In this document: positions 8,943 through 63,540 of the stretch, one piece after another | Layout of the letters: every line of letters begins with the position of its first letter | How positions within the stretch are numbered: the stretch's first letter is position 1 | Assembly (NCBI GenBank): GCA_907163375.1 | Contig: CAJQUW010009239.1 | Location: 1-64,000 of the forward strand | Source: Prostheceraeus crozeri | Taxonomy: Eukaryota; Platyhelminthes; Polycladida; Euryleptidae | Direction: 5' to 3' | DNA length: 64,000 nt | The notes under the pieces: generated by a model | Database searches by the model: none | The model's input: only the letters and a program-made list of their open reading frames with translations | Told to the model about the DNA's origin: nothing | Made by a program: the position numbers and the translations under genes

Positions 8943-10370
8943 GGCTGAGTCGTAAAAAACCGCGTTTTTTTCATCGAAAACGACTATAATAAATGACTAT
9001 ATAAGTTGTTGTCAATAAGAAGACGTGAAATTGCATTCAAATTGAGCAGATATCTACATAGTCGTATTGAGAAATTGACGTCAATAAGAAGACGTAAAAT
9101 GGCATTCAAATTGAGCAGATATCTACATAGTCGTATCGATTATTATAGTAAATTCATCTATGATAAATTATTTAAATTCTACATTGCAAGATTTCTAGCC
9201 ACTTTGACAATATCATCTCAATTGGCAATAATATTGGCATTCAGCATGGAATGTACGAAAGAAAAAATGTATTTCTTAATTAAATCTCTCAGAAGGTGCA
9301 ACTATACAGCGACAAAAATCCATACGATCCTAATGCAGTCCTGGCCAGATCAATCATTAAGTGTCAGAAGGATAAAAGAATTATGCAAAGAATTCAAAGA
9401 AGGAAACAGATGCACTTTCAGCCGAATCGATGGTAGTGGCAGAAATTACTGCGACGAAAGATATAAAAAAGTAGAAGAAATCAACCACTTGATTGATGAT
9501 AACAACAGCTTGTCAACAAGAGCAATCGCACGAACTGTTGACATCACTAAATCAATAGCACAGAGAATCCTAAGCAAAAATCTGGAGAAGATGTGGATTC
9601 ATGCTCGTTGAGTTCCTCATCAATTGACTCCATATAACAAGGCCGTTAGGTATGAAAAGTGCCAAGATATGCTCGAACAACTGAAGTCGTGTTTAACAAG
9701 AAAGAATTTGATTACAATATACGAGAAATGGATTTACCTGCGAAATATGAACCCACGCAATACTATCGGAAGCTGGGTTACTACAGGTGGCGATTCTCCT
9801 TTTGTCAAAACTGCCAAAAGAACACCCATGGAAGCAGAAGTCATGTTTATCTTGGCTCTATCACAGACAGGCCACCATTACTTTGAGATCTTTCGTCAAT
9901 GCGAGACTATCAACTCCGAAAGATACGTGCAATTCCTAAGAAATCTGGAAAATCATCTGAAGACATTGCCTCAACCCATATTGTTTCAAAACGTTCGACT
10001 GATTCAAGACAACGCACGACCACACGTATCTGCAATCACCACAAATTTCCTGATTGAAAAAAATGTACAGTTATTAAAGCAACCACCCTACAGTCCTGAC
10101 TGTAATTTATGCGATTGCTACGCTTTCTCAAGACTGGAATCCGTAAGAAAAAGTGATTTCGTTGTTGTGCATGAAATCCATGACTTTTTGAATGAAGAAC
10201 TTCCAAAATCTACAGCACTTCAAATGGAAAAGGCATTGAAAGAACTGGAAGAGCACTTGGAAAGAGTTATTGCAGCCAGAGGTGACTATGTTTAGGCAAT
10301 TCGTGAATTTTGAAATGACTTTGTAATTGATAATAAAGATTGAAGGATTGCGGTTTTTTACGACTCAGCC
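8943..10370 (+). mobile_element. Tc1/mariner element 1 (1,428 bp)
   Basis: A 21-bp perfect terminal inverted repeat (GGCTGAGTCGTAAAAAACCG plus C) bounds the element, and a TA dinucleotide flanks each end (8,941-8,942 and 10,371-10,372), as expected for Tc1/mariner insertion. It encloses one transposase gene. The leader carries a tandem duplication of roughly 70 bp (about 9,010-9,140). Confidence 0.93.
9246..10295 (+). pseudogene. Mariner (DD34D) transposase, broken
   Basis: Cut-and-paste transposase of the mariner family. The ATG at 9,246 starts a helix-turn-helix N-terminus (SLSVRRIKELCKEF) and a second HTH (LSTRAIARTVDITKSIAQRI). The catalytic domain has QDNARPH for the second Asp and SPDCNLCDCY for the third, 34 residues apart, so it is DD34D type. 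Two defects are visible. There is an in-frame TGA at 9,609-9,611, just before VPHQLT. The position of the first catalytic Asp is Tyr (ITIYEKWIY). Otherwise the frame stays open to 10,295. The element is probably immobile unless helped in trans. The upstream ORF extension (from 9,006) reads through the duplicated leader and is unlikely to be translated. Confidence 0.88.
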
Positions 10371-24982: not shown

Positions 24983-26592
24983 AAGGGTGTTCCAATAACT
25001 TGGAACGATTTTAAATGTAAATTATGACGAAATGACCAACTATTTCTTTACGTTTTAAGCATATTGATTAACTCCAGTCATTGTCAATTGACAATTGTAA
25101 CAATGTGTTCGCTTGAACATAGTTCAACCGATTAAAGTCAAACCTTGAATCTGCGACTGTGAAAAGATTAATTGACAATCATTGAACCACTGCAGACGTC
25201 TTCTCTGACAATCACAGCAATGGAAAGACTAACAATCCAGCAACGTGTTAAAGTTATCGAGGCCTATTACGAGAATGGACGTTCAAACAAGAAAACATTT
25301 CGTGCTCTTCGGTCTGTCTTTGGTCATCAGAAGCGACCAACTGAGAGCGCGATTGGGAAAATTGTGAAGAAGTTCGAAGAAACTGGGTCTGTGGCAGATG
25401 TAAAGACATCATCGCGTGCTCGTTTGCGCCGTTCGGATGAGAACATTGACGCAGTTCGCCAGTGTTGCCGAGAACCCTAACACATCCATTCGTCATCGTG
25501 CGCAGGAATTGAGCATCTCAGCAACAACATTGCATCGGATTTTGACTAAAGATTTGTCCCTACACGCTTACAAGATTCAATTGACACAAGAACTGAAGCC
25601 CGATGATCATCTGAAGACTCACTTTCGTTAATTGGGTTCATGAGCAACGACAAGCCAATGTTGACTTTTCGCAGAAGATCCTCTTCTCTGACGAAGCCCA
25701 TTTTCACATTGGTGGATATGTCAATAAGCAGAACTGTCGCATTTGGGCAGATGAAAATCCAAGGAAGATTGTTGGGAAGCCGCTGCATCCACGAAAAGTC
25801 ACTTTTTGGTGTGGATTTCATGCCAACGGAGTCATTGGACCGTATTTCTTCGAAGATGATGCAGGGAATCCCGTTACGGTTACTGGTGAGCGGTATCGTG
25901 CCATGATAAAGAACTTTTTATGGCATGCATTGGATGGCATGGATATTGGAGGTCTGTGGTTTCAACAGTACGGCGCCACAAGTCATACAGCAAATTCAAC
26001 GATGACTTTACTCAACGAGAAGTTCCCAGGTCGCATCATTTCGAGAAACAGTGATGTCAACTGGCCACCAAGATCGTGCGATTTGACGCCTTTAGACTTC
26101 TTCCTTTGGGGCTATCTGAAGAGCAAGATCTATGCCAACAGCCCAACAACCATTCAACAGTTGAAGGATGCGATCGCACAGCAAATCAATGAGATCAGTC
26201 CCCAGTTATGCACAGAAGTTATTCAAAACTTTGATCATCGAGTGAATGTGTGCCGCCGCAGTCTTGGTGAACATTTGGGAGACATCATTTTTCATACTTA
26301 ATTGTCGTATGTAGGATGAAGTGGTCCTAAAGGAAACAGAATGTAATTTTGATAATGAATTGGCAGATTTTTGATTGCTAATTAATATTTTTGCACTTGT
26401 AATCACTAAAGAATTAAGGTTAAAAATAAATCGATTGAACTATGTTCAAATAGACACGTTGGTCAAACGACACTACATTCATTGTAATTGCCAATAGCTA
26501 TAGTCAATAAATCCATTTGAAACGTAAAGAAATAGTTGGTCATTTCGTCATAATTTACATTTAAAATCGTTCCAAGTTATTGGAACACCCTT
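24983..26592 (+). mobile_element. Tc1/mariner element 3 (1,610 bp) with long inverted repeats
   Basis: The terminal repeats begin AAGGGTGTTCCAATAACTTG and match nearly perfectly for about 65 bp, with weaker pairing to about 155 bp including the GAACATAGTTCAA patch. TA flanks both ends (24,981-24,982 and 26,593-26,594). It encloses a decayed transposase gene. Confidence 0.93.
25220..26301 (+). pseudogene. Mariner-type transposase of element 3, frameshifted
   Basis: From ATG 25,220: an N-terminal HTH (TIQQRVKVIEAYYENGRSNK), a second HTH (SIRHRAQELSISATTLHRIL), then the catalytic domain FSDEAHF, WFQQYGATSHT and RSCDLTPLDFFLWGY. The reading frame changes twice (about 25,455 and 25,630), and a stop lies at 25,629-25,631. 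The second catalytic Asp is replaced by Tyr in QQYGAT, so even the open C-terminal frame (25,636-26,301) would be inactive. The spacing to the last Asp is 41 residues. It resembles the insect and marine-invertebrate mariner group annotated as Tc3-like transposable elements. Confidence 0.9.
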
Positions 26593-48034: not shown

Positions 48035-50470
48035 TGATCATTCAATGGTTTATTCTGTAAATCGAAGCGCTTTTTATTGAATCACATCATTTACATTACA
48101 TGTATATCGAACATATTGTCAGTCGGATATACTAAGCTCGGTATTAATGCAACTTCGAAGGTGCAAATTAAAAAATGACCACTGCAAAATATTGCCTTTT
48201 AACTCCGTTGGAACAGGGATTCACCCCATTTCATATCACTTCATTTTGAAGATTATACATAAGAGGTATGAACACTTCACGCCATCTACAGAAACAAAGA
48301 ACATAAGCTGATTTAATTTATTTTTTGATTTGCCGATATAGCAATTTTTCAGTTAATATTGGACATTGAAAACGCTGTTAGGATTTAACAGGACGATTTG
48401 AAATATACATGCAAGTAATATTAAATCACAGATAAAATAGCAATAACTTATCTTAATAACTCCGATACCAATGAACGGGGAAAATTTAAGTGATCGAAAG
48501 ATAAATTTTCATTGACATCAAATAGAACTTCAAATTTTAGGCCTATCGGCAATTACACTATTACCGATGAGGTTTGGGTAGTAATTCCCGGTGGTGATTA
48601 CCCTTTACAACACTACCTTTGTTATATGAAGATAACAAGAGGTCGTGAAGTCTCAGAAAGACTACCAGGAAATGATGAATGGATTCGGACGTGCAGGATG
48701 ACTTGGCCACTAGCAGCCATGTGTTCCTATTGGCCCCTTAATTAATCACAATGTAGCACAAGGCAGATCTAGATGAACCTGTTAATCAACTTTAAAAACT
48801 TGAGTGGTGCCCTATTCAGTATAGTAGCTCTCGCACTAATTTTGATTGTTAGTTTATTTGCAGTCTGTAGGTAAACAGAAATCAATATGATTGAAAAAAA
48901 CATAATAACCTTATGACAATATGCATTATTCCACATGTAATTAAAAATGTAAGACTAGTCGATGCAAATCTTCAAGCTTTCAAAAAATTCTCATAGGCCT
49001 ATTCACACATTGGCCTACGTGATTTGCAGGTCTTTGGGCATTCCGTTAATGTTTTGACACTTGAAGTCATAGCCCTATTGTTAGGATAGTGACGAAGTAG
49101 ATTTACCGATAAGTAATAGTGCGGTTTTCGTGCCTATCAATTACCCCTTCAAGCAATAATGACAATAGGAAGGATTTATGACAACTTAAAGGAATATTTG
49201 GCATAATTGCATTAAATGATGGTTGTAGGTTATATTTAGCCTTGTCAGTTTACTTGGATTCAATTTTTATGCTCCATATCGGCGAAACCAAAAGACGCCA
49301 TGAAAGCTAGGACGGATAAATACAGTAGTTTTAGAAATTTGAGGGGCAGAGCGCGCGGTCGAATCTTGGGAAGAACTTAGACGCCAAACAGTTGAAGAGA
49401 ATTGGTTGGAGAGGATTGTAAGTGGACTGGATGGTGGTGCTTGACTTTAAATGATGACATTTCGAAATCAACCTCATTGACAAGATATTCTAGTTTTTCT
49501 AGTAAATTTATCAAATCATGTGCTTTGTAAGTATATGAGTAAATACGTTTAAAATGGTCTTCGAAAGCTGGTCTGTGTTCCGAACCTCGTGAATTTTGTA
49601 CTTTTGAGGACTGGATGTGCATGTATGCAGAATATGTACAGCTATCCCTGTTGCCAGCAAATTTACTAACCTATTTGTACCGGTATACAAAATTTCGATA
49701 AGGATTCAAAATTTGTGACATACCTTGGCCTATAGAATAGTTGGATCAATTATTAAATTATTATCATTAATGGAAAAAGGATTGTATTCAATATAGATTG
49801 TCTGCTTTACTGTCAATAGGAGGGTATTTAAAAAATTTTGCATATCCAAGTGGAAGGATTTTCTGTCCTATTTTGCAAAATTTGTAGGCTCTACATATTG
49901 TGATGTGTAAACCTAGGATCAAAACTTGGAAAGAGTGTATACTTGAGAAAAAAAAATTGGAATCAAAAGAAGTTGATGTCGAAGAAGCGAAAGAAATTCA
50001 GAGTTCTTGTATAAAATAGAGTTCTTGTAGTTCTTGCATTCATTTTGAAGGCAACATGCTCGTAAGATCAAATTTTATCATCTCGATCTACCGTCGATCT
50101 CCAACGGAAATAGACGTTGTTCAAGAAGAAATCGATGCCCTATACAAATATGAATGTAGTTTACTTTCTATTGAATAATTCAATAATCAATAGAGTTTTA
50201 AATCGAAAAAATGTATATTTGTTGATGAAATGTTGCTTGTGAGTTCCTGATATACCGGTATTTGGTTTCAATGATACTTTGCAATGGAAGCGTGTAGTCA
50301 ATTTGATAATAGTATGCTATGGATACACGTTTACATACATAGGCCCTACCAGATGTCACACAATTAAAAATGATTAATCTTGGTAGACAAATTGAATCAG
50401 CATTAACGATAAACTAACACATCAGTAGTAACCCCGTGGCAAATTCACGCGCAAAATGTGAAAGGATGAG
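48035..50470. other. No gene recognised
   Basis: AT-rich with short chance ORFs. No domain or repeat boundary recognised. Confidence 0.4.
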
Positions 50471-50473
50471 TCA

Positions 50474-51075
50474 TCATGCTGACTCAGCCCCCCCCTCTGG
50501 CAGGAAGGGAGTTGTCCAAGGATGTGTTGGGAGGAATGGGTCCGTGAGGAGGAAACTGGTCCCTCCCCCCCTCTGGAAGTAAGGAAGGAAGGAGGACTGA
50601 TGAGGCAAGGGGTGGGAAGGAAGGCGGTAGGAATGTGTGAGGGATAGAGTGAGGAAAGGGCGGGTGTTGGTGGTTTTGGGATGAGAAAAGTCGTTTTTCG
50701 AGCAGAAGGAGGCCTCGGATGAGAAAACGGAGGCCAGATTCGGAATTTTTGGCCAATTTTGGGTTAGGAAGGATGTTTCCAGCGACATTGGAGAGAAAAA
50801 GTTTTGAAGACGTCCCCCCCCCCTCCTGCCAAACTACCAACTTTGGTTGTAGAGATCGTAGAAAGTCGTGCAATAGCTCGTTTGAAAGCTGGGAGTGAGA
50901 CAATTTCAGTGAAAAACATGGCTTGTTCGTATCTGCCTTCGTTTAGAGGTGAGACGTTATTGAAAATTTTGGGACATTGACGAAAAAACGACAGAGTTAG
51001 AATGTTTATGAAAATCGGTCTAGCGGGTGAAGCAAGCCTCGGACGGGAAAACAGAGACCAGACTTGGAATCAGTG
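50474..51075. repeat. Inverted copy of the 7.8-8.8 kb G-run repeat family
   Basis: On the minus strand it repeats the units at 7,780-8,800: CTCACCTCTAAACGAAGGCA, a CAGCTTTCAAACGAGCTAT patch, an A-(G)9-ACGTC motif, the CTGGAAACATCCTTCCTAAC patch and CTGGCCTCCGTTTTCTCATC. Three C-run motifs lie at 50,488, 50,565 and 50,812. It directly borders element copy 2 and may mark its left boundary. Confidence 0.78.
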
Positions 51076-51132
51076 TGCCATGTTACACCTGAATGTCATT
51101 CATGCTATGTCTCCGAAGTGAAAGGAAGAAAG

Positions 51133-51555
51133 ATGACAGAAGCAGTAAAGTTTACGAATGAATTTTGTTCACTACGTTTTCATCGACAAAGTCTTCGGGG
51201 TGTGATTAGGGACTACATCATCTCCTTTCATCATGAAAAGGCAGACTTAGAATTTGCTATCGCTAAAGGTTACTTCGTTTTCCAACAGCTCATGGACAGT
51301 TTGATGAATAAAGATGTGAAAGGACGATTAGTTGCAGAGATTGAATTTGAGAAAGTGACTGATGAACATGTAGGTGAACGTGTAGTGTTTCATTTTGCAT
51401 CCTATTCTGCAGAGACGATACATGATCCCAAAGATTTCTATCAGCGACACATGGCGAAAATTGCATCTCGACTAGATTCATTTCATGAGCATGGATCCAA
51501 CTTGCTCTTATGTCGCATAAAACACATTCATATTCAACTCAATGTGCTAAACTAG
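51133..51555 (+). CDS. Stand-alone protein related to the PolB N-domain, paralogue A
   Basis: 140 residues, intact; role unknown. It shares a pattern with two other small proteins here (53,920-54,341 and 62,123-62,575) and with the conserved N-domain of the element's PolB (60,110-59,790). Shared marks are LRFHRQSLRGVI, DVKGRLVAEIEFEKV, an F-x-x-RH-x-x-K-I segment (FYQRHMAKIASRLDSF) and an alternating-hydrophobic end (IKHIHIQL). In PolB the domain sits between the zinc fingers and the exonuclease region, so a replication-linked role such as binding DNA or polymerase is a reasonable inference. The ATG at 51,133 was chosen over the track start because 51,064-51,075 belongs to the flanking repeat. 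No promoter was identified. Confidence 0.65.
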   Translation: MTEAVKFTNEFCSLRFHRQSLRGVIRDYIISFHHEKADLEFAIAKGYFVFQQLMDSLMNKDVKGRLVAEIEFEKVTDEHVGERVVFHFASYSAETIHDPKDFYQRHMAKIASRLDSFHEHGSNLLLCRIKHIHIQLNVLN

Positions 51556-51653
51556 ATTTGACTACAAGATTTGGGAAAAGCATTTATGAGTTAGACGTCC
51601 GCGTGCCTCCTTTTCCCTGCCGCAACGAAGTCAGTGGAGAAACGGAGGTCTCT

Positions 51654-51725
51654 GATTGGCTCACATAGTGTCAAATGTGGATTCGCAGGAGATTATAAAA
51701 GCAGACGTCTCCCCATTTTCTCTTC
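51654..51725 (+). promoter_or_regulatory. CCAAT/TATA promoter for the 51.8-52.9 kb gene
   Basis: Inverted CCAAT box GATTGG (51,654-51,659), then TATAAAA (51,694-51,700), 40 bp apart. Transcription would start near 51,725. The same pair precedes two other genes of the element. Confidence 0.7.
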
Positions 51726-51819
51726 ATTTCATTCTCTTGACTTGGAAAGCGTGTGTGACTTGCTGAAGCCATTCTCTCCTCTCAACTTTGTCTGATCAAT
51801 CCTGTTTGCAAATTTACAA

Positions 51820-52176
51820 GTGAGTGTCATGACTGTCTGGCCTAAACCTTACCAGCCTTTTAGAAGAGAGACGCAGGAGAGTGTGTGGCCGATGATTGTA
51901 CAAGCATATTTTGTTGAACCTTCGCCGCCACCGCTTCCACCACCTAGACGCTTTACCTTTAAGTCTTTCAGGGAATTGAAACTCAATGCGGGTCCTAAGC
52001 CCAAGACATTTAATTTACTGAACGATGACGAAGACTTAGACTTTGGTGATAAGCTTTAAATCCTGTGAACGCTCCAAAAGGTCCTCTTAAGGGCCACCTC
52101 ATATGTCACTGCTAAGCTAACAATTTTCTTTTTTCTGATGATCATGAATGTACTTAGTGGTACTCTTTCGTTACAG
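51820..52176 (+). other. Probable 5'-leader intron
   Basis: Donor ACAA|GTGAGTGTC at 51,820 and acceptor TTTCGTTACAG at 52,176 would join a non-coding first exon (about 51,725-51,819) to the coding exon whose ATG is at 52,183. The donor nearly equals that of the PolB leader intron (ACAAG|GTGAGTGTC at 61,935). Inferred from consensus only. Confidence 0.5.
51829..52059 (+). CDS. Small proline-rich ORF with acidic tail
   Basis: 76 residues starting MTVWPKPYQPF, with a PSPPPLPPPRR patch in the middle and an acidic end (NDDEDLDFGDKL). No family recognised. It lies wholly inside the probable leader intron, so it would be made only from unspliced or differently spliced RNA, or may not be a gene. Composition is protein-like rather than random, which is why it is listed. 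Confidence 0.35.
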   Translation: MTVWPKPYQPFRRETQESVWPMIVQAYFVEPSPPPLPPPRRFTFKSFRELKLNAGPKPKTFNLLNDDEDLDFGDKL

Positions 52177-52182
52177 ACTGCC

Positions 52183-52866
52183 ATGGCCATGAATCCTACT
52201 CCAACTGCTGCATCACTGAATCCTCAACATCTCGAGCTGTGGTATTCGAAAATTGAAAAGGTAATTTACGGCTATCCTACCTACAAACAACAAGTGCGCT
52301 ACAACGGTGTACGACTCTATCTTCAAACGCCGGCGGTATACTTACCAAAAGTGGCTACGCAAGTAAATCGTTGCGGTCAAAACCTGAGTATCCCTATTGA
52401 TAATTGGTTGCGACAGCAGCTTGACATTTTAGAAGACGTTGTGAGGCAAAAGGCTCTTATTCCTACTGAACTATTACAGTTGTGACCAGAAAAGAAAACT
52501 TCTTATTATAAACCATTGTATCGCGGCACTCGCTGCTATATTTTACAAAGCAAGTATTGTAAAGTCACTTCAGGAGTGACAGTTGAACAGTCAGTTGAAA
52601 CAGAATTGTCATCGCTAGGTGCTGGCTTTTATTCATTTCATATTGAGGTGCCTGCTGTTTATGTGGGACCTCATCAATCTGACGGTAATTTGATTTCTCT
52701 CAATTTGCGCATTGCTCAAATTCATCATCAACCAGAGTTAACAGGACTTGATCACATTGAGAAAGTCATTGATTCTTGTGTCAAAGAGTGTCAAGAACCT
52801 GTCACCAAACCTAAACGTCGTCGCACATCAAAGAAAGATGGTGCTACCACCAAAGAGAAATCTTAA
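52183..52866 (+). pseudogene. Putative ssDNA-binding-like protein A (in-frame stop)
   Basis: About 227 codons in one frame interrupted by a single TGA at 52,483-52,485. The first half carries RYNGVRLYLQTP and LSIPIDNWLRQQLDILEDVV. The second half carries KPLYRGTRCYIL, GFYSFHIEVPAVYVGPH and SLNLRIAQI, and ends in a basic tail (KPKRRRTSKKDGATTKEKS). A paralogue at 54,682-55,241 keeps the same two halves. The layout (an N-G-x-x-L-x-L-Q-T-P strand, a helix after L-x-I-P-x-D, then beta-rich segments) reminds me of ssDNA-binding proteins of large DNA viruses, but that is a weak judgement by eye. The in-frame ATG at 52,138 lies within the probable intron, so 52,183 is preferred. Confidence 0.5.
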
Positions 52867-52966
52867 GTATTGTAATCAGTTAGTATGTAGTGAATGTGGA
52901 AAACGCGGTCTTGCGCGTTATGTTCAAATAAAACATTGTCATCATGTTGTATGCATCTTTTGTTAT
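52867..52966 (+). other. Zinc-binding exon candidate before the exonuclease
   Basis: The open frame encodes LVCSECGKRGLARYVQIKHC followed by HHVVCIFC, a CxxC...HC...CxxC pattern suited to zinc binding. A donor TAT|GTAAAG at 52,966 and an acceptor ATATTGTAG at 53,039 would join it in frame to the exonuclease exon across a 73-nt intron, similar in size to other introns of the element. There is no start codon in this stretch, so a further upstream exon is needed. Confidence 0.4.
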
Positions 52967-53039
52967 GTAAAGGACAGACATCCTTGTAAAGTTCCTGCTC
53001 AATGTATTATTTTGTAATGAAGTCTTTTTGATATTGTAG

Positions 53040-53771
53040 GTTGTCATCTTCATAGACAGTGAGGGAACGCCCATGCAGGAATTGAGTGCTATTGCAATGA
53101 GAGAAAGTGATCAAACTGTTGTTAGTGTATATCATAGATTTGCCTACTGTCCTCCACACAAAGACAAAAAAACGCAATGCCCATGCAGGAATTGAGTGAG
53201 ACAAAGACAAAAACGCAATGCCCATGCAGGAATTGAGTGCTATTGCAATGAGAGAAAGTGATCAAACTGTTGTTAGTGTATATCATAGATTTGCCTACTG
53301 TCCTCCACACAAAGACGAATGGTCACGACGTCATGTGCATGGACTTGATCCTTCTATTTTGATTCATATTGGATTTGTAAATGAAACGTATTTGATAAGT
53401 GATTTCAAACGGTGGTTGTCAGGTTTTCATATTGTTAAAATATTAGGAAATGCTTCTGAACGAGAAGCAACAACACTTCAGTTGCACATTGATAATTTAT
53501 ATTTACCATGTTGGGTAGATCGTGTAAGACAAGACCATCATATGCATTGTGATCAAAAGAAGTTTAGAGATGAAATGATTTTTGACATGGCAATATGTTT
53601 CGGTGAGAACATCACCTGTACAGACCACCATCCCATTGTAATACTAGAAATAAAGCTGCCTACATTGCAAAACTCTCTTCACGCTGGCATTGTAGTCTCT
53701 ATGACGTTTATGAACTGTATATTATTGTCAACAGCATGGGTGTATGTAAAACATGTTTTTACTCCTTGTGA
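53040..53771 (+). pseudogene. DEDD-type 3'-5' exonuclease-like gene, broken by tandem duplication
   Basis: Begins after a probable splice acceptor with VVIFIDSEGTPMQELSAIA, where D-x-E is motif I of DnaQ-like (RNase-H-fold) exonucleases. The middle has RRHVHGLDPSILIHIGFVNE and the end has HCSLYDVYELY (about 53,690), fitting motif III H-x-x-x-Y-D. A 151-bp tandem duplication (the ACGCCCATGCAGG segment recurs at about 53,067 and 53,218, with a 41-bp sub-copy between) shifts the frame. A second frameshift near 53,635 separates the body (53,218 onward) from motif III. Proofreading or nuclease work beside the PolB is the natural inference. AATAAA follows at 53,830. Confidence 0.7.
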
Positions 53772-53919
53772 ATGAATGATGATCATTTTATGAAGTGTAT
53801 TCTGTACTTGTGAATTTTGTCTGGTGTTGAATAAACTTACAGTGGAACATGATTGTTATTTCTATTTTATTCATAGTGGAAGTCATTGAAGCAATGTGAA
53901 ATCTATAGTTACAACGTTT

Positions 53920-54341
53920 ATGATGGCGCATCGTACCTTAAGCAACCACATGTGTCATTTGACACTTGATCAACAAGGATTCGATGGATTTTTACAAGAT
54001 TGGAAACTTACATTTAAAATGAAGATGAATGATATGAAAGTAGTGCTCACTGAAAGCCTTCCTCTCTTCAAAAGATTGATGGAGAGTTTACGACCTCAAG
54101 ATGTAAAGGGTAGACTCGTTGCTTATATAGAGTTGAAAGATTTACAAAACCACTTCGTTTTGGATCTTATTGCACAGAATGGATTACTCTTAGTGATCAA
54201 TTTTATGGTCGTCATATGGAGAAAATTATGGAGAGAATAGTAGAGACGTTGGAAGGAAATGCATACGTTGTTAAACATATCATGATTCAACTGAGTGTGT
54301 TTACATCCACGACTTTGTTTGATGCTCGACACATTGTGTAG
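53920..54341 (+). pseudogene. Stand-alone PolB-N-domain-like protein, paralogue B (frameshifted)
   Basis: Starts at tandem ATG codons (53,920). Contains LRPQDVKGRLVAYIELKD, matching DVKGRLVAEIEFEK of paralogue A. Near 54,145 the frame shifts and the family pattern continues in another frame: FYGRHMEKIMERIVETL and VVKHIMIQLSVF, to a TAG at 54,339. AATAAA at 54,346 follows closely, as expected for a compact viral-type gene. One frameshift is the only visible damage. Confidence 0.68.
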
Positions 54342-54611
54342 ATGCAATAAAGATTTCTTTTCACTGAGTATTTTGTAATGGTGTATAGAGCAACATGAGT
54401 CATTGCGCTTTGTGCATTACTATCAGGCTCTTTGTTAGATAAATGAATGCGTCTTTGTTCGCTAGAAGGGCGTGTCACTCAAGTCTTTGTGAGGACTAGA
54501 ACGAGTTTGTAAGAGGGAAGGTTTCCACCCACGCAGTCAAAAGTTCACGTGTGATAACTCTTTGTCACATAACAAAGACAGGGAAAACGAGAGAAGGTAA
54601 AAACGCATGTG

Positions 54612-54680
54612 ATTGGAGCTAGGTCTGCTTATAAAACGGACGACTGAGCGCATGGTAATCATTTCCGTCCTTGCGCTAAC
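54612..54680 (+). promoter_or_regulatory. CCAAT/TATA promoter for the 54.7 kb gene
   Basis: GATTGG (54,612-54,617) and TATAAAA (54,631-54,637), 19 bp apart; the first ATG of the gene follows at 54,682. Spacing is tighter than in the other two promoters of this type. Confidence 0.7.
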
Positions 54681-54681
54681 C

Positions 54682-55241
54682 ATGCAGTTGCTCAAAGCCA
54701 TCAACTCCTCTGCTCTCGCACTGGGTACACTGAACTCCCTTACTTTAGCATCGGGTAAAAATGCTTTCAATGAAAAGATAACTCATCATGGAGAACCCGT
54801 AACCATAAAAACTCCAAGTCAACGGATAGATTATCTAAAGATTATGTCAACAAAGAATAGACTGACCGTGTGTGTGCCGTTAGACTATTGGACACGGTTA
54901 CAATTCAATACTCTTGAAACATTCCTGAAAGAAAATCTCACCATTCCCAAAGAAATTGTTCGACACAATGGGAAGCGGTCACAAGTTCCCATCATGGAAA
55001 GACGATGCATATATGTGCATATGGATAGACACTGTCTCATCATCCATGAAAAGGAGGGCAGCGAATTCGACTTAGTCAATTGTAAGCCATTCCTTGAAAA
55101 GGATTCTATTCCTTCGAAATTAAAATTCAAACCATCTACATGACTCCGCGCAGGGACGGAAGGTTGTTTACGTTGAATCTCTATCTTGTCTCCATCACCT
55201 TTAAAAATGATGTCCATGTTGATGATGATCAACTACAGTAA
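54682..55241 (+). pseudogene. Putative ssDNA-binding-like protein B (frameshifted paralogue)
   Basis: The open part (54,682-55,143) has THHGEPVTIKTP and LTVCVPLDYWTRLQFNTLET, aligning with NGVRLYLQTP and LSIPIDNWLRQQLDILED of the protein at 52,183. After a frameshift near 55,105 the second-half pattern resumes in another frame (IYMTPRRDGRLFTLNLYLVS) and runs to a TAA at 55,239. Two divergent paralogues in one element suggest separate roles. The ssDNA-binding idea is inferred, not shown. Confidence 0.5.
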
Positions 55242-55259
55242 CACTCTCCACACACTGAG

Positions 55260-55320
55260 AACGCACCATCGGTCTTTATAAGACCACGGCCTAACGGCCA
55301 CCGTATCAAGAAAGAAAATG
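55260..55320 (+). promoter_or_regulatory. Possible TATA promoter in a small hairpin
   Basis: GGTCTTTATAAGACC (55,271-55,285) is a perfect palindrome centred on a TATA-like core, followed by GGCCTAACGGCC. It lies about 45 bp upstream of the ORF at 55,331. No CCAAT box is seen within 60 bp. Confidence 0.4.
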
Positions 55321-55330
55321 TATACTCACC

Positions 55331-55690
55331 ATGCCACACATGAACATGACTCTCTCTCCTTCTTTCTTAGGCATACCCTTCTTCACTCAGGTTTTAATCA
55401 TGTGGAAATTATCAGCATGGCTCCGTGTATCATGGAAAAGTCAGTGTGTCACATTTCATGATACGAAACGTCAACTTCAGATAACTCTAGAACGCTTTCA
55501 TCTACGAAGGTTGCATCGCGCTATCCCATCCAACTCTTGTCGTGTCATTAACGTAGGAGACGGCATTGTATTTATTCGCATTCAAGAGATGATTCTACAT
55601 AATGATCACTGCTACATTGTGATTCCAAAACCCTCATGGGAAAAGTATAAAAGGGAAGTTCACTCCATCCTCATGTCATTTATGAGTCAT
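55331..55690 (+). CDS. Unknown ORF upstream of the TBP-like gene
   Basis: The open frame from ATG 55,331 reaches 56,029, but the part beyond about 55,690 overlaps the TBP-like gene in another frame and turns S/R/H-rich, typical of a shadow; only the first part is listed as a candidate. It encodes VLIMWKLSAWLRVSW, TLERFHLRRLHRAIPSNSCR, VGDGIVFIRIQEMILHND and YIVIPKPSWEKYKREVHSIL. No family recognised. Two pyrimidine-rich AG sites (55,370 and 55,390) could be splice acceptors, so the true start may lie inside. It could also be an N-terminal extension of the TBP-like protein lost to a frameshift. Confidence 0.35.
55646..55655 (+). promoter_or_regulatory. Consensus TATA box before the TBP-like gene
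   Basis: TATAAAAGGG lies 43 bp upstream of the TBP-like ATG (55,689), so transcription would start a few bases before it. It also reads as codons of the upstream ORF (EKYKRE), so overlap by chance is possible. Confidence 0.5.
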
Positions 55691-56228
55691 GCTTCCCATC
55701 CGCATCATAAACGCCATGCGCGAAATGAATCTCAGAAGAGACATCGATTTAGAACAGTTGCATACCCATCTTCCCGATTCAGTCTATCATCGCGGTCGTC
55801 CGCAAATGTTGGTCATTCGCATGAGCAACGGTCGAAATCTTCAAATCTTTCGCTGCGGCAAAATCCAAGTCCTGGGAAACCTTTCTCATTTCGTGATGCA
55901 GTCCATGTGTTACGAAGTCGTCAAGAAAATGCGAACACTCATGCCTCATCTCCGCCTCAGTCCCCTGACATTGAAGAATATAGTAGTGTCTGTTTAATTG
56001 AAGATGTTAGTGAATCTAGCCAACATTAAAACCAGTAATCATTGTATATTTTATGAAACTGAAATCTTTCCTGCTGCTCTGATTCGGAAGTGGCATCCTG
56101 TACATATTGCAGTGTTTCATAACGGACATTGTATCATGACTGGTTTACGTGATATCAGTAAAGTAGCTGCCATTGTTAAATCTTTAATGCGTTATCTGTA
56201 TGAGTCACAGTTAATAGAATCGTGTTAA
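55689..56228 (+). pseudogene. Divergent TATA-binding-protein (TBP) core, one in-frame stop
   Basis: 179 sense-or-stop codons, the size of the TBP core, with the two pseudo-symmetric repeats of the TBP saddle. Repeat 1: PQMLVIRMSN, LQIFRCGKIQVLGN and YEVVKKMRTL. Repeat 2: LKNIVVSV, IFYETEIFPAALIRK, HIAVFHNGHCIMTGL and IVKSLMRYL. The F-x-x-GK-x-x-x-(T)G strand-turn-strand and the E-x-FP-x-L-I-x-R segment are TBP signatures. Three of the four DNA-kinking Phe positions appear kept (IFRCGK, EIFPAA, AVFHNG); the first in repeat 1 is not. A TAA at 55,995-55,997, between the repeats, interrupts the frame. Animal nuclear TBP is extremely conserved, so this divergent copy is not a host retrocopy. TBP-like proteins are known from some large DNA viruses. 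It would direct transcription from TATA promoters. Confidence 0.85.
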
Positions 56229-56264
56229 TCACATGATGTGTTTTGAATGAGTCATCGCAATGAA

Positions 56265-56520
56265 CTATCGTCCACACTCTTGTCGGCGAAAAGGGCATCA
56301 ACAAGGTTCTTCGCTTTATGATGAGTCACAGCTATTTATAGACATGAAAGGATGCCCACACACTTGTCGGTGAAAAGGTCACGCTGTCCGACGTGAGGCG
56401 CCATCGATGTTGAATGACACGCCCACACACGTGTCGGTGAAAAGGTTGAACATGACCGATTCGATTCTTATGACTGGCCCTTACCCCTTCATGAGTCAGA
56501 GCTATTTATAGACATGAGTC
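56265..56520 (+). promoter_or_regulatory. Repeated cis-element cluster with TATA-like cores
   Basis: CACTCTTGTCGGCGAAAAGG and its variants occur three times (about 56,275, 56,358, 56,430). ATGAGTCAnAGCTATTTATAGACATGA (n is C or G) occurs twice (about 56,320 and 56,490); each copy joins an AP-1-like TGAGTCA to a TATTTATA box. Lies just after the TBP-like gene and before the AT-rich repeats, in the gap between convergent gene blocks. It could be promoters of small transcripts or part of a replication region. Confidence 0.6.
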
Positions 56521-56539
56521 AGCAAAGTGGTTGATGTTT

Positions 56540-57000
56540 CCTAAGCCGAAGAAATTGTCATGATGTTACATTCGTTGGTATGGATGATAACTTACAAACT
56601 CTAACATGGTTTTGACTTCATTTTATATTTCACCTATCTTACAAACAGCGACATGGGTATAACTTTATTTCTAACTTTACAAACAGTTAAGTGATTCTAA
56701 CTTCATTTATATTTCACCTATCTTACAAACAGTGATATGGTTATAACTTATTTTATGCTTTACCTATCGTGTAAACAGTGAGATGATTCTAACAATTATT
56801 CAAACTTTACATTCATCAACTTTATTTCTAACTATACAAACGTCAATTTTATTTCTAACTTTGCAAACAGTGAAGTGATTCTAACTTCATTTATATTTCA
56901 CCTATCTTACAAACAGCGACATGGGTATAACTTTATTTCTAACTTACAATCAACATCTTTATTTCTAACCCTACCCATCTTACAAAATGATTGAAATTTT
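56540..57000. repeat. AT-rich tandem repeat field, about 100-bp units
   Basis: Imperfect units contain TTCTAACTTCATTTATATTT, CACCTATCTTACAAACAG and a GGGTATAACTTTATTTCTAAC patch. The unit TTTCACCTATCTTACAAACA appears at about 56,625, 56,727 and 56,897. No ORF. Comparable but different repeats lie on the other side of PolB (62,640-63,540). Confidence 0.75.
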
Positions 57001-57388
57001 TACTTCTGTCTAATGAGTGAGAATTCCATCTTTATGTCAAAAGAAAAACGACACAGTCTGTACATGATATGTTATTCATCATCACAACCGATTTTCATAG
57101 CACTGCACATAGTTAATACTGATGGCAGCAGAAAAAAAAGTTTTTATGGCTCACATCACCGGAGAAAACAAAGTCACTGATATTCAGGGAGAAAACAAAG
57201 TCACTGATGTGTCGGAAACTGTACAGGGAGAAAACAACGTCAGGAAAACCAGTTGATATGCAAGTCATGATATGAAGTGATCAGGAGTTGGACGCATGTT
57301 ACAAGGCACTCACTCACAACATCCCATAGAAAACGCCATGGAGCGAAAAAGCAAAACATCAACCACAACAGAGAGGAAGCATTCATCA

Positions 57389-60300
57389 TCAGACATCGCC
57401 GGACGGAGGAGGAGAAAGTTTCTGTCTCTTGGGTGGAGGTAGATGAGTGTCTGGATGGCCGTACGGTAATGAGTGGTTAGGACTCATCCAGCATCGCTTG
57501 TCTTCCCAAGCTGAGAGACCTCGTTTCCTAAACGTCGTTGTTCTGACTTGATGCGACTGAGATTTTAAAATGGTCATTTCTACTTTTTTAATTTTAAGAG
57601 AATCTAAGGCATCTTGATAGTCCCTATGTGTCATTTTTCTAACGATTGACTTCGAGATGCCTTTCGCCCGTTTTATAGAAAGCTCTGAGGATTTTAGCTT
57701 TATGGAGTACATCTTGGGGCAAAGCAAGATCATCTCCTCTATCTGTTTGCCTTGAATCCTTGAAGCAGCCAAGCTTCGCTTTATTTGAGGTAGAGTAAAG
57801 CGGATGGTCAGTGGGATAGTTGGAACTATCAAACTTGGGTGCTAAATATTTTAAAATGTGTTCCTGCTTGACTTGGCTCGTGGTTGTCAAAGCTAGGAAG
57901 AAGCTGTCTGTATCACCTCCTACTAATTCCACACGTTTGAGAAGTGAACATGTCTAAAAAGTGTGGTAAAATAACTTATACATTTCTAACTTGGAGTGAT
58001 CCAAGACAGCTTGACCGACATAAATGGGCTTACAAAGTTCTACTTTAGATTTTAACATTTTAAAACCAGTGATGTCTTCGAAAATGACATCATGGTGGCA
58101 AAACAACGGCGAGCGACATAACTTGATACTCGTTTCCGGATCAGTTACGATGCGATAGTTCATGCGCTTTCTTACATCCTCCATGGTTTTACCAAAGAGG
58201 GCATTATTCTTAAATTTAAAGAAGTCCTTTTCGAAAGGATTCTTGGATTCAGCCCGTTTCTTGCTATTAAATTCTATATACGGTTTTAGAAAGGGCTTCT
58301 GCCTAAACTGGATAGCGCGATGGACTTTGTCAAGTCGCATCCCCATACCTAGATAGAATTTGAGGATGGAATAGTGCACGATGTAATGCTGCTTGTTCAA
58401 TTGGGTGAGCAACAACTTCCTAGTGGCTTTATACTTTAAGTCATTTTCCACCTCATATTTCTTATTGTGTTCTTCCATAAAGGGAGAGAACATATCTGGA
58501 CTGACTATGCCAGATTCGGGTGCGAGAGGAAAATCAACGGTCCTATTCTTAATGCAGTCTGGATAGATGAGGTCGACTTCAAATAAATAACCTATGTCGG
58601 CCTCATCTCCCAGTGCCATGATGTGTGCTGGATTGGAGAAGTGTTAAATGTCATGGGGCTCTAATGTTCATCTGTCAGTGATGCACATAAATTTTTCCTT
58701 ACTTTGTGCAATCACTTTGGATGACCAGGATTTCATTTTACCGAATCCATGGCGAATGATGATTTGAGCATCATAACATTTAAAGTTATGAAAGATGACG
58801 GGGAGCGTTCGCCGTTTGAGCCTAAGTTTCATATTGCATTTACTGCATAATGCAGACCTAAATTTACCACTGAGATGGCAATGGTCCCTCACTTTCTTAT
58901 GTTGCTGATCATCAAAGGATGAACAGCAGCGGGGACATTCCGTGGTCCTATCAAATTTGACTTTATCGGCTTTTGTGAAGCACATGGGTTTCCTAGTTAG
59001 CTCCGTTTCATAGCGTTGATGAAAATGGGCTTTCCTATCTAAAAAGTTGAGGAAGTTTTCAACGCACTCCTCGCCTTGCCACGCATGCATCTTATTTTGA
59101 TTCCTATAATATGGATGCCAAACTTCATAGCAGGCAATGGCTGCTGGCTCATGACTTAGGTCTTCTTGTTCAATATAACATTCAATGTCCGCATAGATGG
59201 TACACATGGGACTGAGCTCATTGCCGTTTTCCTCACACCTATAAAATTTATCTTTGGGCATGACTTCCATTTGAAGTTTACCCCGAGAGCACCACTCGTA
59301 ATGCTGTTCAAAAAATGCTTTTGACCTAAAGCGTCGTGTGCAGCGATCACAGTAATAATGTTTGTTATCATAACTTTGCTGGTGGTGATACAATCTAGAA
59401 ATTTTGGGAATGCCACAATAATGCCATTCTGGGTGGTTGTCGCTATAGACTAGGAGGAGATTGACACCCCGGTCGAAGTTACTTTGGCGGTTTTTATACC
59501 TAACGCCCTTCAGACCTTTTCCCCAGAGATGAATGACAATCTAAATGTTATTCAATTTTTCAAATTGGGCGATGCCTTTAAAATCTAATGTGTTGACATC
59601 TAACCCGTCAAACTTAAGCTCATCCTCCCATTCACGATACTTGGTGACTCTTTGACGATCCCTATCTATATCATTATAGTGAAGAATGGAGAGGACGGCA
59701 TACTTGAAACACTGGGACTGACATTCTACATTGACGACAGCCTTTTTGTCAGCCAGTGCTTTGGGGAGGGTGAAACAACCACTCCCTTGTCAATTTTCTA
59801 AAAGATTGATTTTAATGTCTACTTTCTCTATCCCATCAAAGACCAGACCGCTGTCTGTTTCATTAAATTTATTTAAATTGCTGACGAGATAGGTCGCATG
59901 TCTCTCTATCCACTCGTTTACATCACCTATGAGATCAGCAGCACAGGAGGCTATCCTAATGGTCACAGGGGACTCTACTTCTCCCGTGCTACTGTCTACC
60001 TTATTGAAACGAGCAGTGAGATAGAACATGCCCTTAAGTAAAAATCTATCTAAGCTCGCCAACATTTGATGAATGAAGCCTATATTATTCATCAAGAAAG
60101 GATGAGTATCTTGTGCAGGTTCAGAGCTTTCTAACTCATAGTCGCGAACGAGCCTCTCAAGGGAAAACTTGCTCAGCCTTAGAGTGACGTTGTTGTCAGT
60201 GTAAAGCTCAGTGGGATGAGTGTGACAGAGTGTGTGTGAAGAAAGAAAAAACTCTGTAGGAAAGGTCTTCTGACACGAAGAACAGGAAAAGCCGACGTGC

Positions 60301-61486
60301 GATGAAGGATGCTTCCCACCTGTTGTTGTTGGTGTTTGCCTCATACTGCCACAGGAACCGCCTTCGATGTGGACTCGCAAGTTGGCGCTGTTGTAGAACG
60401 TGCGTCCACAACCTTCACACTTGGGCCGTTGAGGGATTGGTCGGCGCTTTCCTCCCCTGCAGGCGCGCCCAGCGGTGTGACGTCTCAAACTGTAGGCTGA
60501 GGCGAAGACTCTGTCACACCGCTGGCATTGAAAGTCCTCCTTCTTTTCGACTTCCATCTCCCTCTCCTCTCCCACTATCTCTAGCTCCTCCTGCTCCAAC
60601 AGTCTCTCCACCGACTTGACGAGGAGGAGAGGGAGGTCGGCCGCTGCAGGTGGTGGTAGTGATGCCGGGATGATGATGGAACGGGAAGGAACGTCGCCGT
60701 CCAGGAGGTAGGCCGCCAGATCTGTTGAGAAAAACAGAAAAGAGATTAGTAACATGATCAACATTTCAAGTTAGAAGTCTTATCCCCCTATTTCCCTATC
60801 ACGACTACTTACCATCTAAGGACTGTAACTCCGGCAGCAGGGATGGACGCGGAGGAGGCAGGAGAGGGACGGGAGCCGAGGTTGGAAGGGTCCTTGGCTT
60901 CGGTGTCGGAGGGACGTGATGGCGAGGAGCCGGGACTGGCGCAGGGACGGGCGCAGGTACCAGAGCTCGTGGCGGTGGGGCGATGACAGTGCCCGAGAAA
61001 GGGGTCGCAGCTTGGGCGGAGGTAGATGAGCGGGAAGGTAGGGCCGGAAATTCCTCGCGGTATTTCCGCCTCGCGGCTTCCTCCCACTTCTTCTTCTTCG
61101 CCATATCTGTAGAGAGAAAAGAGAGATTAGATAATGAGACAGGGATGATGCAGAATTTCTGAAACATTATAAGCATGAAATGTTAAAGATACTTACACTT
61201 TCCGAGCAGCTCATAGGCTTCCCCGATTGCTCCTTGGGGGATGGGTTCCCCATTACGAATACATTCATGTACTGAAAAAGAATGACAGCAAAGATAAGCA
61301 GAGGTGAAATTTGGATTCGGTTTAAACATGAACAACATAGGGGAGGGGCTGTTGATTTTAATGAGGATGTCTACCCTAATGATGTTAGTAATAGAGTCAA
61401 CCTTGTTACAAATACTTACATTGCTCGATGGTGGCTTTCTCCATCTCGGCAGCAGTTCGATAGTTCTCAATTTTTGCGAATTCCAT
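57389..61486 (-). pseudogene. Spliced PolB gene, copy 2 (zinc-finger N-terminus; damaged)
   Basis: Family-B, protein-primed-type DNA polymerase. Proposed coding exons: 61,486-61,420, 61,271-61,197, 61,106-60,813 and 60,721-57,389. Order of parts: short helical start (MEFAKIENYRTAAEME), basic and proline-rich linker, three C2H2-like fingers (FQCQRCDRVF, PKCEGCGRTF, FSCSSCQKTF), conserved N-domain (60,110-59,790), exonuclease region with a YADIECYI motif (about 59,190), then the C-terminal palm with motif B (FKNNALFGKTMEDVRKR, about 58,200) and motif C (GGDTDSFF, 57,920-57,897). Damage: TGA at 59,790, TAG at 59,541, stops at 58,668 and about 58,646, TAG at 57,954 and a frameshift near 57,760. 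At 58,620-58,670 the palm stretch with motif A is missing. Splice phases agree at every exon join. Not functional now. Confidence 0.88.
60722..60812 (-). other. PolB intron 3 (91 nt)
   Basis: Donor GATG|GTAAGTAG at 60,812; acceptor TTTTTCTCAACAG ending at 60,722. Joins two open frames in phase. Intron 2 (61,196-61,107, donor AAGT|GTAAGTATC, acceptor TCTCTCTACAG) and intron 1 (61,419-61,272, donor CAAT|GTAAGTATT, acceptor TTCTTTTTCAG) have equally strong consensus. Confidence 0.75.
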
Positions 61487-61532
61487 TTTTGTTCGATTAC
61501 AGACAGCAGATTATGTTAGTAGATTTCAATCA

Positions 61533-61935
61533 CTGAAAAGGAAAGATGAAAACCGTTTCATTTGCCTAGTCAACGTTTGGGAACAATCATTGAAGTGACA
61601 TCTAATGAGTTACATCTCACTCTACTCCATATCATAAAGACTAACCTTTGTCGAATGGCTGAAGTACTCTGACCTGGCGAGAGAAAGCATCACGTTGAGT
61701 ATGAAGTCGAACGCCCAACATGAGCAACGGCTCAGAGGTTTCGGTCTAACAAACGACGAACAACCCGTGCAACGCAATCCCTCTACGGCAGTACCCGCCG
61801 TCCCGAAGGAACGCTCGAGCAAAGGAGGTATTAAAGCGATGATATGTTTTATGAGCAGAAGATGTGATAGCAAGAGACTATTCAATTTGATAGCAAGTCA
61901 AAACAACCTGATAGCAGGAGCTCACCGACACTCAC
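61533..61935 (-). other. PolB 5'-leader intron (403 nt)
   Basis: Donor ACAAG|GTGAGTGTC at 61,935 and acceptor CTTTCCTTTTCAG at 61,533, just upstream of the coding ATG at 61,486. The first exon (about 61,955-61,936) is non-coding. Confidence 0.6.
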
Positions 61936-61949
61936 CTTGTGAAAGATAA
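61701..61949 (+). CDS. ORF opposite the PolB leader intron, doubtful
   Basis: 82 codons starting MKSNAQHEQRLRGFGL on the strand opposite PolB, inside its leader intron. No family recognised. The composition is not obviously random, but no promoter or paralogue supports it. Probably a chance ORF. Confidence 0.2.
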   Translation: MKSNAQHEQRLRGFGLTNDEQPVQRNPSTAVPAVPKERSSKGGIKAMICFMSRRCDSKRLFNLIASQNNLIAGAHRHSPCER

Positions 61950-61954
61950 ATGTG

Positions 61955-62030
61955 AAGAACACAGCTGGTGCACTTTCTTTTATAAGATTTTCCTAAGCGG
62001 TGAATGGATGAGACCTCTCGTCCAATCACA
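61955..62030 (-). promoter_or_regulatory. CCAAT/TATA promoter of PolB
   Basis: Minus strand: GATTGG (complement of CCAATC at 62,022-62,027), then TATAAAAG (complement of 61,977-61,984), 43 bp apart, matching the layout at 51,654-51,700. Transcription would start near 61,950, shortly before the leader intron. The CCAAT box may also serve the divergent gene at 62,123. Confidence 0.72.
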
Positions 62031-62122
62031 GACGAGCTAGAGTTCCCGATGTGCGCACGCACATTTGTAACGCGTTATTGAAATCGTCCTAGGCAAAATG
62101 ATGTTTAGCAATAGACTCAACC

Positions 62123-62575
62123 ATGGCACCTGAAGTCAATACATTGAAACATGATGATTGTACGATTCGTTTTCATCAAGAGTGCTTCGGAGGCTTAATA
62201 CAAGATTACATCCTTGAGTTTCAAAGGGAGGAGACAGAATTGGAAGCATATTTAGACTACACACGAGAAATATTTACGGAGTTGATATCATATTTCAAAG
62301 ACAGTCTCATCAAGGCTCATTTAATTGCACATGTCAATTACACTCATTTTCCAGAAGAAGAAGTAGCGGAAAGTGTTGACTTTCAATTTCGTTCCTACGG
62401 ACAAGAATATGTTACTGATGCTTCTGAGTTTCATACACGACATCTGCGGAAGATTATTTCTCGGATGGAAAACTTTCACGGTTACGGCGATCATTTGCTT
62501 CTGAATAAAATAAACCATATTGTCATTGCTATTAGTAAAGTGGGTTTCAATGATGTTAAATCAAAGACCAAATAA
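62123..62575 (+). CDS. Stand-alone PolB-N-domain-like protein, paralogue C
   Basis: 150 residues, intact. Aligns along its length with paralogue A at 51,133: CTIRFHQECFGGLIQDYILE, then SLIKAHLIAHVNYTHF, FHTRHLRKIISRMENFHGYG and INHIVIAIS. It shares the F-x-x-RH-x-x-K-I segment. It lies divergent to PolB, sharing the region between 61,985 and 62,122 as promoter. The stop codon overlaps an AATAAA signal (62,571-62,576), an economy typical of viral genes. Function unknown; homology with the polymerase's own N-domain suggests work with the replication machinery. Confidence 0.65.
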   Translation: MAPEVNTLKHDDCTIRFHQECFGGLIQDYILEFQREETELEAYLDYTREIFTELISYFKDSLIKAHLIAHVNYTHFPEEEVAESVDFQFRSYGQEYVTDASEFHTRHLRKIISRMENFHGYGDHLLLNKINHIVIAISKVGFNDVKSKTK

Positions 62576-62639
62576 AGTATTTTTTCATGACACTTGTGTT
62601 GTGCTTAACTTTCTAGTGCTGTTGTGAACACTGTTTTCA

Positions 62640-63540
62640 TATAACATTCTAAACTCTCATTGCAGTAGAAAACTGCTTTTAGTAAACCTGATGAAGCTAA
62701 TCTAACAGTCACGAAGTTTGAATTTTCTAATAAGGGAACATTTGCCAACTGTCTCCAATAAAACTTTCTAACACTGTGAAAGTAAGTTACAAGACAATCT
62801 ACACTGTGCAGTAAAACCTTTTTGATAAAACTTTCTAGTGCTGTGATGAGTTTGGTCAGTCATACAACTTCAATGATTAAACTTTATTTTCACAAACGTG
62901 CGTTGCGGTAATATTATTTGACTACACTAACTTTGCAAACCATGATACACTTTCTGACGACACTCAAGAATAAACTTCAATGATCAAACTTTATTTTCAC
63001 AAACATGTGTCGCAGTAATACTAGTTGACTACACTAACGCTTGCATTTCATGACATGTGTGTTTCATACAATGTCAATGATCAAACTTGTCTAACTATAC
63101 ATCAACCTGTGTTGCAGTAAAACCTTTGTAAAACATGATAAAGTTTCTGACTAGACTTACGAATACAACTTCAATGATTAAACTTTTCTAACTATACATC
63201 AACCTGTGTTGCAGTAAAACCTTTGTAAAACATGATAAAGTTTCTGACTAGACTTACGAATACAACTTCAATGATCAAACTTTACTTTTACAAACGTGTG
63301 TCGTAGTAAAATTATTTGACTACACTAGCGCTTACATTTTATGACATGTGTGTTTCATAAAACGTCATGATCAAACATTATTTTCACAAACGTGCGTCGA
63401 GGTAAATTATTTGACTACACTAACACTTGCATTTCATGACATGTGTCTTTCATACAACGTCAATGATCAAACTTGTCTAACTATACATCAGCCTGTGCTG
63501 CAGTAAAAATATTTGACTATACTAAACTTTGCTTTTGCAA
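62640..63540. repeat. AT-rich tandem repeat field between element genes
   Basis: Mixed units of about 60-130 bp share TTCAATGATCAAACTTTATT, CACAAACGTG, TTATTTGACTACACTAACG and GTGTTGCAGTAAAACCTTTG. One block of about 115 bp is repeated almost exactly (about 63,090-63,205 and 63,190-63,290). No coding sequence. Could be a replication origin, a spacer, or expanded non-coding DNA. Confidence 0.78.

What the first reader, a model, noticed from the sequence alone, without database searches (positions are those of the whole stretch)
55689..56228. A divergent TBP core carried by a PolB-type virus-like element
The ORF has both repeats of the TBP saddle, the right length, and three of four expected DNA-kinking Phe positions. 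It sits among replication-type genes of the element, not beside host genes, and is far more diverged than any animal nuclear TBP would be. TBP homologues are known in some large DNA viruses. I am not aware of TBP as a standard Polinton/adintovirus gene. It may define a distinct lineage that brings its own promoter-recognition factor. One in-frame stop lies between the repeats.
Basis: partly seen in the sequence, partly recalled or inferred. Interest (0 to 1): 0.92.

Follow-up and report, generated by a model that had tools for sequence, protein, structure and literature searches.

The report
Mobile element carrying its own TBP
A high-copy mobile DNA element in an animal-like genome carries its own very diverged TATA-binding protein, the factor that normally marks gene starts for the host, beside its own DNA polymerase gene, which suggests that the element helps to switch on its own genes.

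Summary
Both halves of 55689-56228 hit Pfam TBP separately (E 1.3e-9, 3.4e-7), with three of four DNA-kinking Phe. The stop is not shared: 38 of 47 locus hits in this genome have an unbroken 179-aa frame. The gene lies in a ~13-kb repeat (window ~50424-63515) with a Polinton/adintovirus-type DNA polymerase; 8 of 8 other copies fetched at length have polymerase sequence beside TBP. The host has an ordinary TBP elsewhere. 101 relatives were found. A second family in this genome has a 44%-identical TBP near a capsid-like frame.

Inferred mechanism: it binds TATA-type promoters and recruits host TFIIB and Pol II. TFIIB-contact Glu are kept in 31 and 30 of 31 sequences, and a 17-bp TATA block, 43 bp before the TBP start, is identical in both families.

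No integrase, capsid or inverted termini were found in the window family, so it is not filed as a Polinton. Ten literature searches showed no precedent in such elements. DNA binding, structure and expression are untested.

The parts
50424..63515 (.). whole element copy in the window: left end AGTAGTAA.. at 50424, right end a ~95-bp tandem array
   Evidence: right limit is the last match to the terminal array of another copy
51064..51555 (+). ORF1, paralogue of PolB residues 153-327
52138..52866 (+). ORF2, broken here (two frames), 265 codons unbroken in other copies; paralogue of ORF5
53218..53775 (+). ORF3, reading differs at its end from 187-codon frames of other copies; no family match
53896..54240 (+). 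ORF4, shortened here; paralogue of ORF1
54613..55143 (+). ORF5, shortened here; paralogue of ORF2
55331..56029 (+). ORF6, overlaps the TBP gene in another frame
55638..55654 (+). 17-bp block with TATAAAAG (55646-55653) 43 bp before the TBP ATG, identical in the second TBP family
55689..56228 (+). TBP gene, two PF00352 repeats, one stop between them in this copy
56577..56949 (.). tandem repeats between the convergent TBP and PolB genes
57389..60764 (-). PolB gene, broken and lacking about 700 bp at 58663/58676; 1361-1364 codons unbroken in 3 of 4 copies read
60805..61176 (-). ORF9, possible upstream exon of PolB (splice-like sites by eye)
62123..62575 (+). ORF10, paralogue of ORF1
62862..63515 (.). 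right terminal tandem array

Best explanation
The ORF is a dead copy of a gene of a high-copy mobile element that encodes a B-family DNA polymerase. The gene makes a small TATA-binding protein of a distinct family. Shown: two TBP repeats, unbroken copies in the same genome, linkage to PolB, constraint on the protein between divergent families, and an identical TATA block just before the gene in two families. Inferred: where the element is active, this TBP binds TATA-type promoters of the element, its own included, with a saddle whose second half keeps both kinking Phe and whose first half has one of them replaced by Pro. Inferred: it recruits host TFIIB by the conserved E-x-E-L stirrup and so loads host RNA polymerase II on element genes without the host's TFIID.
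For: PF00352 on both halves and 78.3 bits for an unbroken copy. PolB beside TBP in 8 of 8 long copies. 101 relatives among 114 candidates, all tagged PF00352. E123 31/31, E125 30/31, L126 28/31, F54/F127/F143 31/31. No TFIIB-like match in the ORFs tested, so host TFIIB is the likely partner; a survey found that viral TBPs mostly come with their own TFIIB and keep this Glu in about 40% (PMC7221094, passages). 17-bp TATA block identical in two families at the same 43-bp spacing, while the surrounding ORF6 frame is 20% identical over 85 codons. dN 0.64 against dS about 3.3 for TBP between families.
Against: No expression, binding or structure data. One of four kinking Phe is lost in all 31. The 17-bp block was found only before the TBP gene; no 8-mer is shared by more than 3 of 10 upstream stretches, and TATAAAAG is not over-represented in the window (6 against 4.44 expected). 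The block also lies in the ORF6 frame, so protein constraint is not excluded. dS is near saturation.
Confidence: 0.6

Rival explanations
1. The TBP saddle serves replication or another DNA-handling step of the element rather than transcription, for example binding the repeat-rich stretch between the TBP and PolB genes, or single-stranded DNA.
For: TBP stands beside PolB. Altered first-half Phe. A Giardia TBP lacking key Phe binds single-stranded DNA (PMC12209930, abstract in the listing).
Against: TFIIB-face residues are kept, which a replication role would not need; both second-half Phe are kept.
Confidence: 0.17
2. The protein acts on host transcription: it competes with host TBP for TFIIB or promoters, damping host genes or defence.
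For: TFIIB face kept while the helix that is strongly basic in host TBP (6 K/R, 2 D/E) is mostly near neutral in the family.
Against: No evidence of expression; a genomic resident in many copies gains little by harming its host.
Confidence: 0.13
3. A passenger: a captured host TBP paralogue without function in the element.
For: The host holds further TBP-like sequence (C3829, one TGA).
Against: Scores best with archaeal and microsporidian rather than animal TBPs; shared by two divergent families here and by relatives in other assemblies; protein constraint between families.
Confidence: 0.05

Closest known systems
Archaeal and eukaryotic TATA-binding protein (PF00352)
   Same: two repeats, length, second-half Phe pair, T-G turn, TFIIB stirrup
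   Different: first-half Phe replaced by Pro, no N-terminal extension, scores far below curated TBP equivalog cut-offs, gene of a mobile element
Maverick-Polinton / adintovirus elements
   Same: B-family polymerase with a long N-terminal part, multi-kb mobile element
   Different: in the window family no integrase, capsid, ATPase or protease match and no inverted termini; TBP and TATA not mentioned in two papers on these elements (word counts)
Nimaviruses (wsv303 TATA-binding protein, PMC10871703)
   Same: TBP listed among genes of arthropod viruses that also live as genomic elements (passage)
   Different: large dsDNA viruses with other gene content; wsv303 sequence not compared here
Mirusviruses and Cymbomonas mobile elements
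   Same: TBP in 59% of mirusvirus genomes (PMC10132985, passages); sporadic TBP in algal repeat elements (PMC10675990, passages)
   Different: HK97-type capsids, protist hosts; the algal elements lack an identified DNA polymerase

Membership tests
TATA-binding protein (PF00352) | two tandem TBP repeats over the gathering score | tested here: met
TATA-binding protein (PF00352) | four DNA-kinking Phe | tested here: not met
   three of four; the fourth is Pro in 31 of 31
TATA-binding protein (PF00352) | TFIIB-contact E-x-E-L stirrup | tested here: met
   31, 30 and 28 of 31; role of these residues from PMC7221094 passages and recall
TATA-binding protein (PF00352) | saddle fold and TATA binding | not testable with these tools
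   structure prediction switched off
Maverick-Polinton / adintovirus | B-family polymerase | tested here: met
   exonuclease, A, B and C motif residues invariant in 20 aligned relatives (motif names recalled); some relatives carry PF03175
Maverick-Polinton / adintovirus | retrovirus-like integrase | tested here: not met
   no match among the window family's ORFs; an undetected diverged enzyme is possible
Maverick-Polinton / adintovirus | capsid, ATPase, protease genes | tested here: not met
   none in the window family's ORFs; a capsid-like frame in the second family is unconfirmed
Maverick-Polinton / adintovirus | terminal inverted repeats | tested here: not met
   none found
Nimavirus TBP (wsv303) | sequence kinship to wsv303 | not tested
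   no sequence fetched

The most novel reading that the evidence does not exclude
A widespread lineage of PolB-encoding mobile elements, some with a capsid-like gene, runs a private promoter system inside animal nuclei: its own TBP family recognises an extended TATA block and borrows host TFIIB and Pol II, bypassing TFIID. In this host such families have spread to at least hundreds of copies.
Probability: 0.35. Interest if true: 0.92.

Novelty: new variant of a known kind. Interest (0 to 1): 0.8.

Why it matters
TBP is the near-universal first factor of nuclear transcription. In the searches made here it was seen in print in large DNA viruses, herpesviruses and a few algal repeat elements, not in small PolB elements. 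A ~13-kb transposon-like element with its own TBP, kept across divergent families, would be a compact natural test of what is needed to redirect Pol II, would show one way in which selfish DNA could escape host promoter control, and would give a natural TBP with altered DNA contacts but an intact TFIIB face. It is also a marker for an element lineage that I did not find described.

Tried and rejected
Chance ORF: rejected. Family-wide stop or intron at the stop: rejected, other copies read through. Host gene: rejected, the host TBP is elsewhere and ordinary. Relatives in IMG/VR viral contigs and prokaryote genomes: none confirmed (TBP; PolB; capsid-like frame; recalled capsid-motif patterns); phages none. 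These collections may hold few animal viruses, so the absence is weak. A shared promoter motif over the element: not found (for ORF9 the start chosen was inside the frame). Polymorphism-based selection (40 synonymous, 40 non-synonymous, 5 stop against 24.0, 57.4, 3.6 expected): set aside, because most copies were picked by protein identity. Host species: not identified.

Linkage of the second TBP family to its own PolB: the genome search with the L059 TBP piece did not complete. Read by eye, no TBP row other than C8363 lies near a capsid-like row, and none near a PolB row; each list holds only the best rows of more than ten thousand candidates, so this neither supports nor excludes linkage.

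Full report
Observation. ORFs 55689-55997 and 55998-56228 share a frame broken by one stop. Each half passes Pfam's TBP cut-off on its own (38.2 and 30.4 bits against 22.9). A natural unbroken copy scores 78.3 bits with two stretches and matches archaeal TBP subfamily models over residues 4-170, well below their cut-offs. Solved TBPs are hit at E 1.1e-10 by the single protein and 1.5e-21 by the family profile. It is a TBP homologue.

The window copy is a dead one. The genome has 2.05 Gb in 14165 contigs and is unnamed; a caspase-like frame in L016, recognised by eye, suggests an animal. The DNA search scored 40 of 1505 candidates, all 40 at 98-100% identity. The first TBP half, as a protein, listed 150 of 8187 candidates, all 150 at 98-100% identity and without a stop in that half. 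Of 47 locus hits, 38 have the full 179-aa frame. Several loci are one place fetched twice; one search counts 35 distinct ungapped copies after gapped and partial hits were dropped. All were best-match rows, so the true intact share is probably lower. Other genes of the window copy are broken too, PolB among them.

The element. Eight other copies were fetched with about 8 kb on either side. Counting pieces of 300 bp or more at 85% identity or more, seven are colinear with the window from about 50.6-51.0k to between 61.1k and 63.15k, mostly at 92-98% identity with some pieces down to 85%; the eighth (C381) is a palindromic rearrangement. All eight have PolB sequence beside TBP. In 38 shorter loci (36 places, the window included), 20 show the PolB end within 1.5 kb and 33 show ORF5. 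The other 18 do not reach PolB or do not have it there; for one of them longer sequence shows PolB further off behind expanded repeats (L007/L019). The left end is AGTAGTAA.. at 50424, seen with different flanks in other copies; the right end is a ~95-bp tandem array. No inverted termini were found, and no target duplication was evident in the two copies with both ends read. Stop-to-stop frames in four copies read are: ORF1 174, ORF2 265-270, ORF3 187, ORF4 about 150, ORF5 211-212, ORF6 225-244, TBP 180, PolB 1361-1364 (unbroken in 3 of 4), ORF9 132-136, ORF10 141-164 codons. ORF1, ORF4 and ORF10 are paralogues (ORF1 and ORF10 also of PolB residues 153-327), and ORF2 and ORF5 are paralogues. 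PolB keeps its exonuclease and polymerase motif residues in all 20 aligned sequences (motif names recalled). No ORF tested matched an integrase, transposase, capsid, ATPase, protease or TFIIB; PolB matched zinc fingers and endonuclease VII, as relatives do. The host's own TBP is a separate normal gene at C9306.

The TBP family. A search of 5.77 billion proteins scored 114 candidates and gave 101 relatives, all tagged PF00352; one is 100% identical, the others 39-64%. I aligned 30 of the 101 with the element's protein. F54, F127, F143, Pro38, E123, T151 and G152 are in 31 of 31, E125 in 30, L126 in 28. Aligned to solved TBPs, E-x-E-L lies on the stirrup that contacts TFIIB. PMC7221094 (passages) reports that viral TBPs keep this Glu in about 40% and that nearly all viruses with a TBP-like protein also have a TFIIB-like one. 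Here the residues are kept and no TFIIB-like gene was found, so use of host TFIIB is the natural inference.

A second family. PF00352 hits in this genome (150 listed of 10982 candidates) include many with 234-codon frames. One of them, fetched in part (L059, C8363), is 44% identical to the window family over 121 codons. On the facing strand a frame starts 1.9 kb away and runs towards it (L060). Its opening reads, from memory of Polinton and adintovirus capsids, like a double jelly-roll major capsid protein. Pfam, PHROGs, NCBIfam, PDB and IMG/VR gave no support, so the name is a lead only. In the genome 150 relatives were listed of 10714 candidates, at 96-100% identity, 109 of 150 by my count with a 428-codon frame. 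A second PolB family, 52-65% identical to the window's, has 76 listed copies of 24211 candidates. The two lists share 11 contigs: in 8 of 11 the two genes stand 6377-6398 bp apart in the same convergent order, in 3 they are far apart. So PolB and the capsid-like frame form one element, and a TBP stands beside that frame in the one locus read. TBP next to the second PolB itself was not shown; that search did not complete.

Linkage elsewhere. Among 101 TBP and 125 PolB homologues, two pairs share exactly the same longest-contig length, 16341 and 16847 bp. For contigs of 10 kb or more (13 and 37) this is 2 against 0.04 expected per offset; over all lengths it is 2 against 0.42, and another offset reached 4, so the support is moderate.

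Promoter block. GGGAAAAGTATAAAAGG lies before the TBP gene, with TATAAAAG starting 43 bp before the ATG in both families. The ORF6 frame upstream is 20% identical over 85 codons, so constraint on the DNA is likelier than on the protein, but both remain possible; only one second-family locus was read. The block was not found before the other genes, no common motif was found, and TATAAAAG is no more frequent in the window than expected.

Selection. Between the families TBP has dN 0.64 and dS about 3.3, near saturation; PolB has dN 0.29-0.43 with saturated dS. The proteins have been under constraint. The comparison among copies is biased and not used.

Print. Ten searches (listings and abstracts) and passages of nine papers showed TBP in nimaviruses, mirusviruses, algal repeat elements, herpesviruses and other large dsDNA viruses, but no TBP in Polintons, adintoviruses or similar PolB elements. 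The founding adintovirus paper was not held, and most subscription papers are not in the library.

Verdict. TBP identity and linkage to a PolB element are shown. The promoter role is inferred (0.6). The window element works like a Polinton-type self-replicating element as far as PolB goes, but is not filed as one, because integrase, capsid and inverted termini were looked for and not found.

Noticed in passing
genome contigs C6222, C381 (L025), C6261, C12493, C1944, C2494; window about 58.3-58.7k: Tail-to-tail inverted pairs of TBP copies 3.8-6.8 kb apart recur (6 of 7 close pairs noticed by eye, listed); in C381 the fold-back lies inside PolB, near the place where the window copy lacks about 700 bp. 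This looks like an amplified palindromic derivative.
   Followed up: partly
window 55331-56029: ORF6 overlaps the TBP gene in another frame over a long stretch, and the second family has a long frame in the same arrangement; a possible overlapping gene or a by-product of TBP constraint.
   Followed up: partly
window 51064-51555, 53896-54240, 62123-62575: Three free-standing paralogues of one domain, two of which match an N-terminal part of PolB; function unknown.
   Followed up: partly
window 3148-3483 (-): By eye, a fragment of a PolB N-terminal part resembling the second PolB family.
   Followed up: no
window 8997-10295, 12350-13408, 25172-26301: By eye, mariner/Tc1-like transposase frames.
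   Followed up: no
genome C3829:151570-151938: A second strong TBP-like sequence with one TGA (64.8 bits); host TBP pseudogene or paralogue, not fetched.
   Followed up: no
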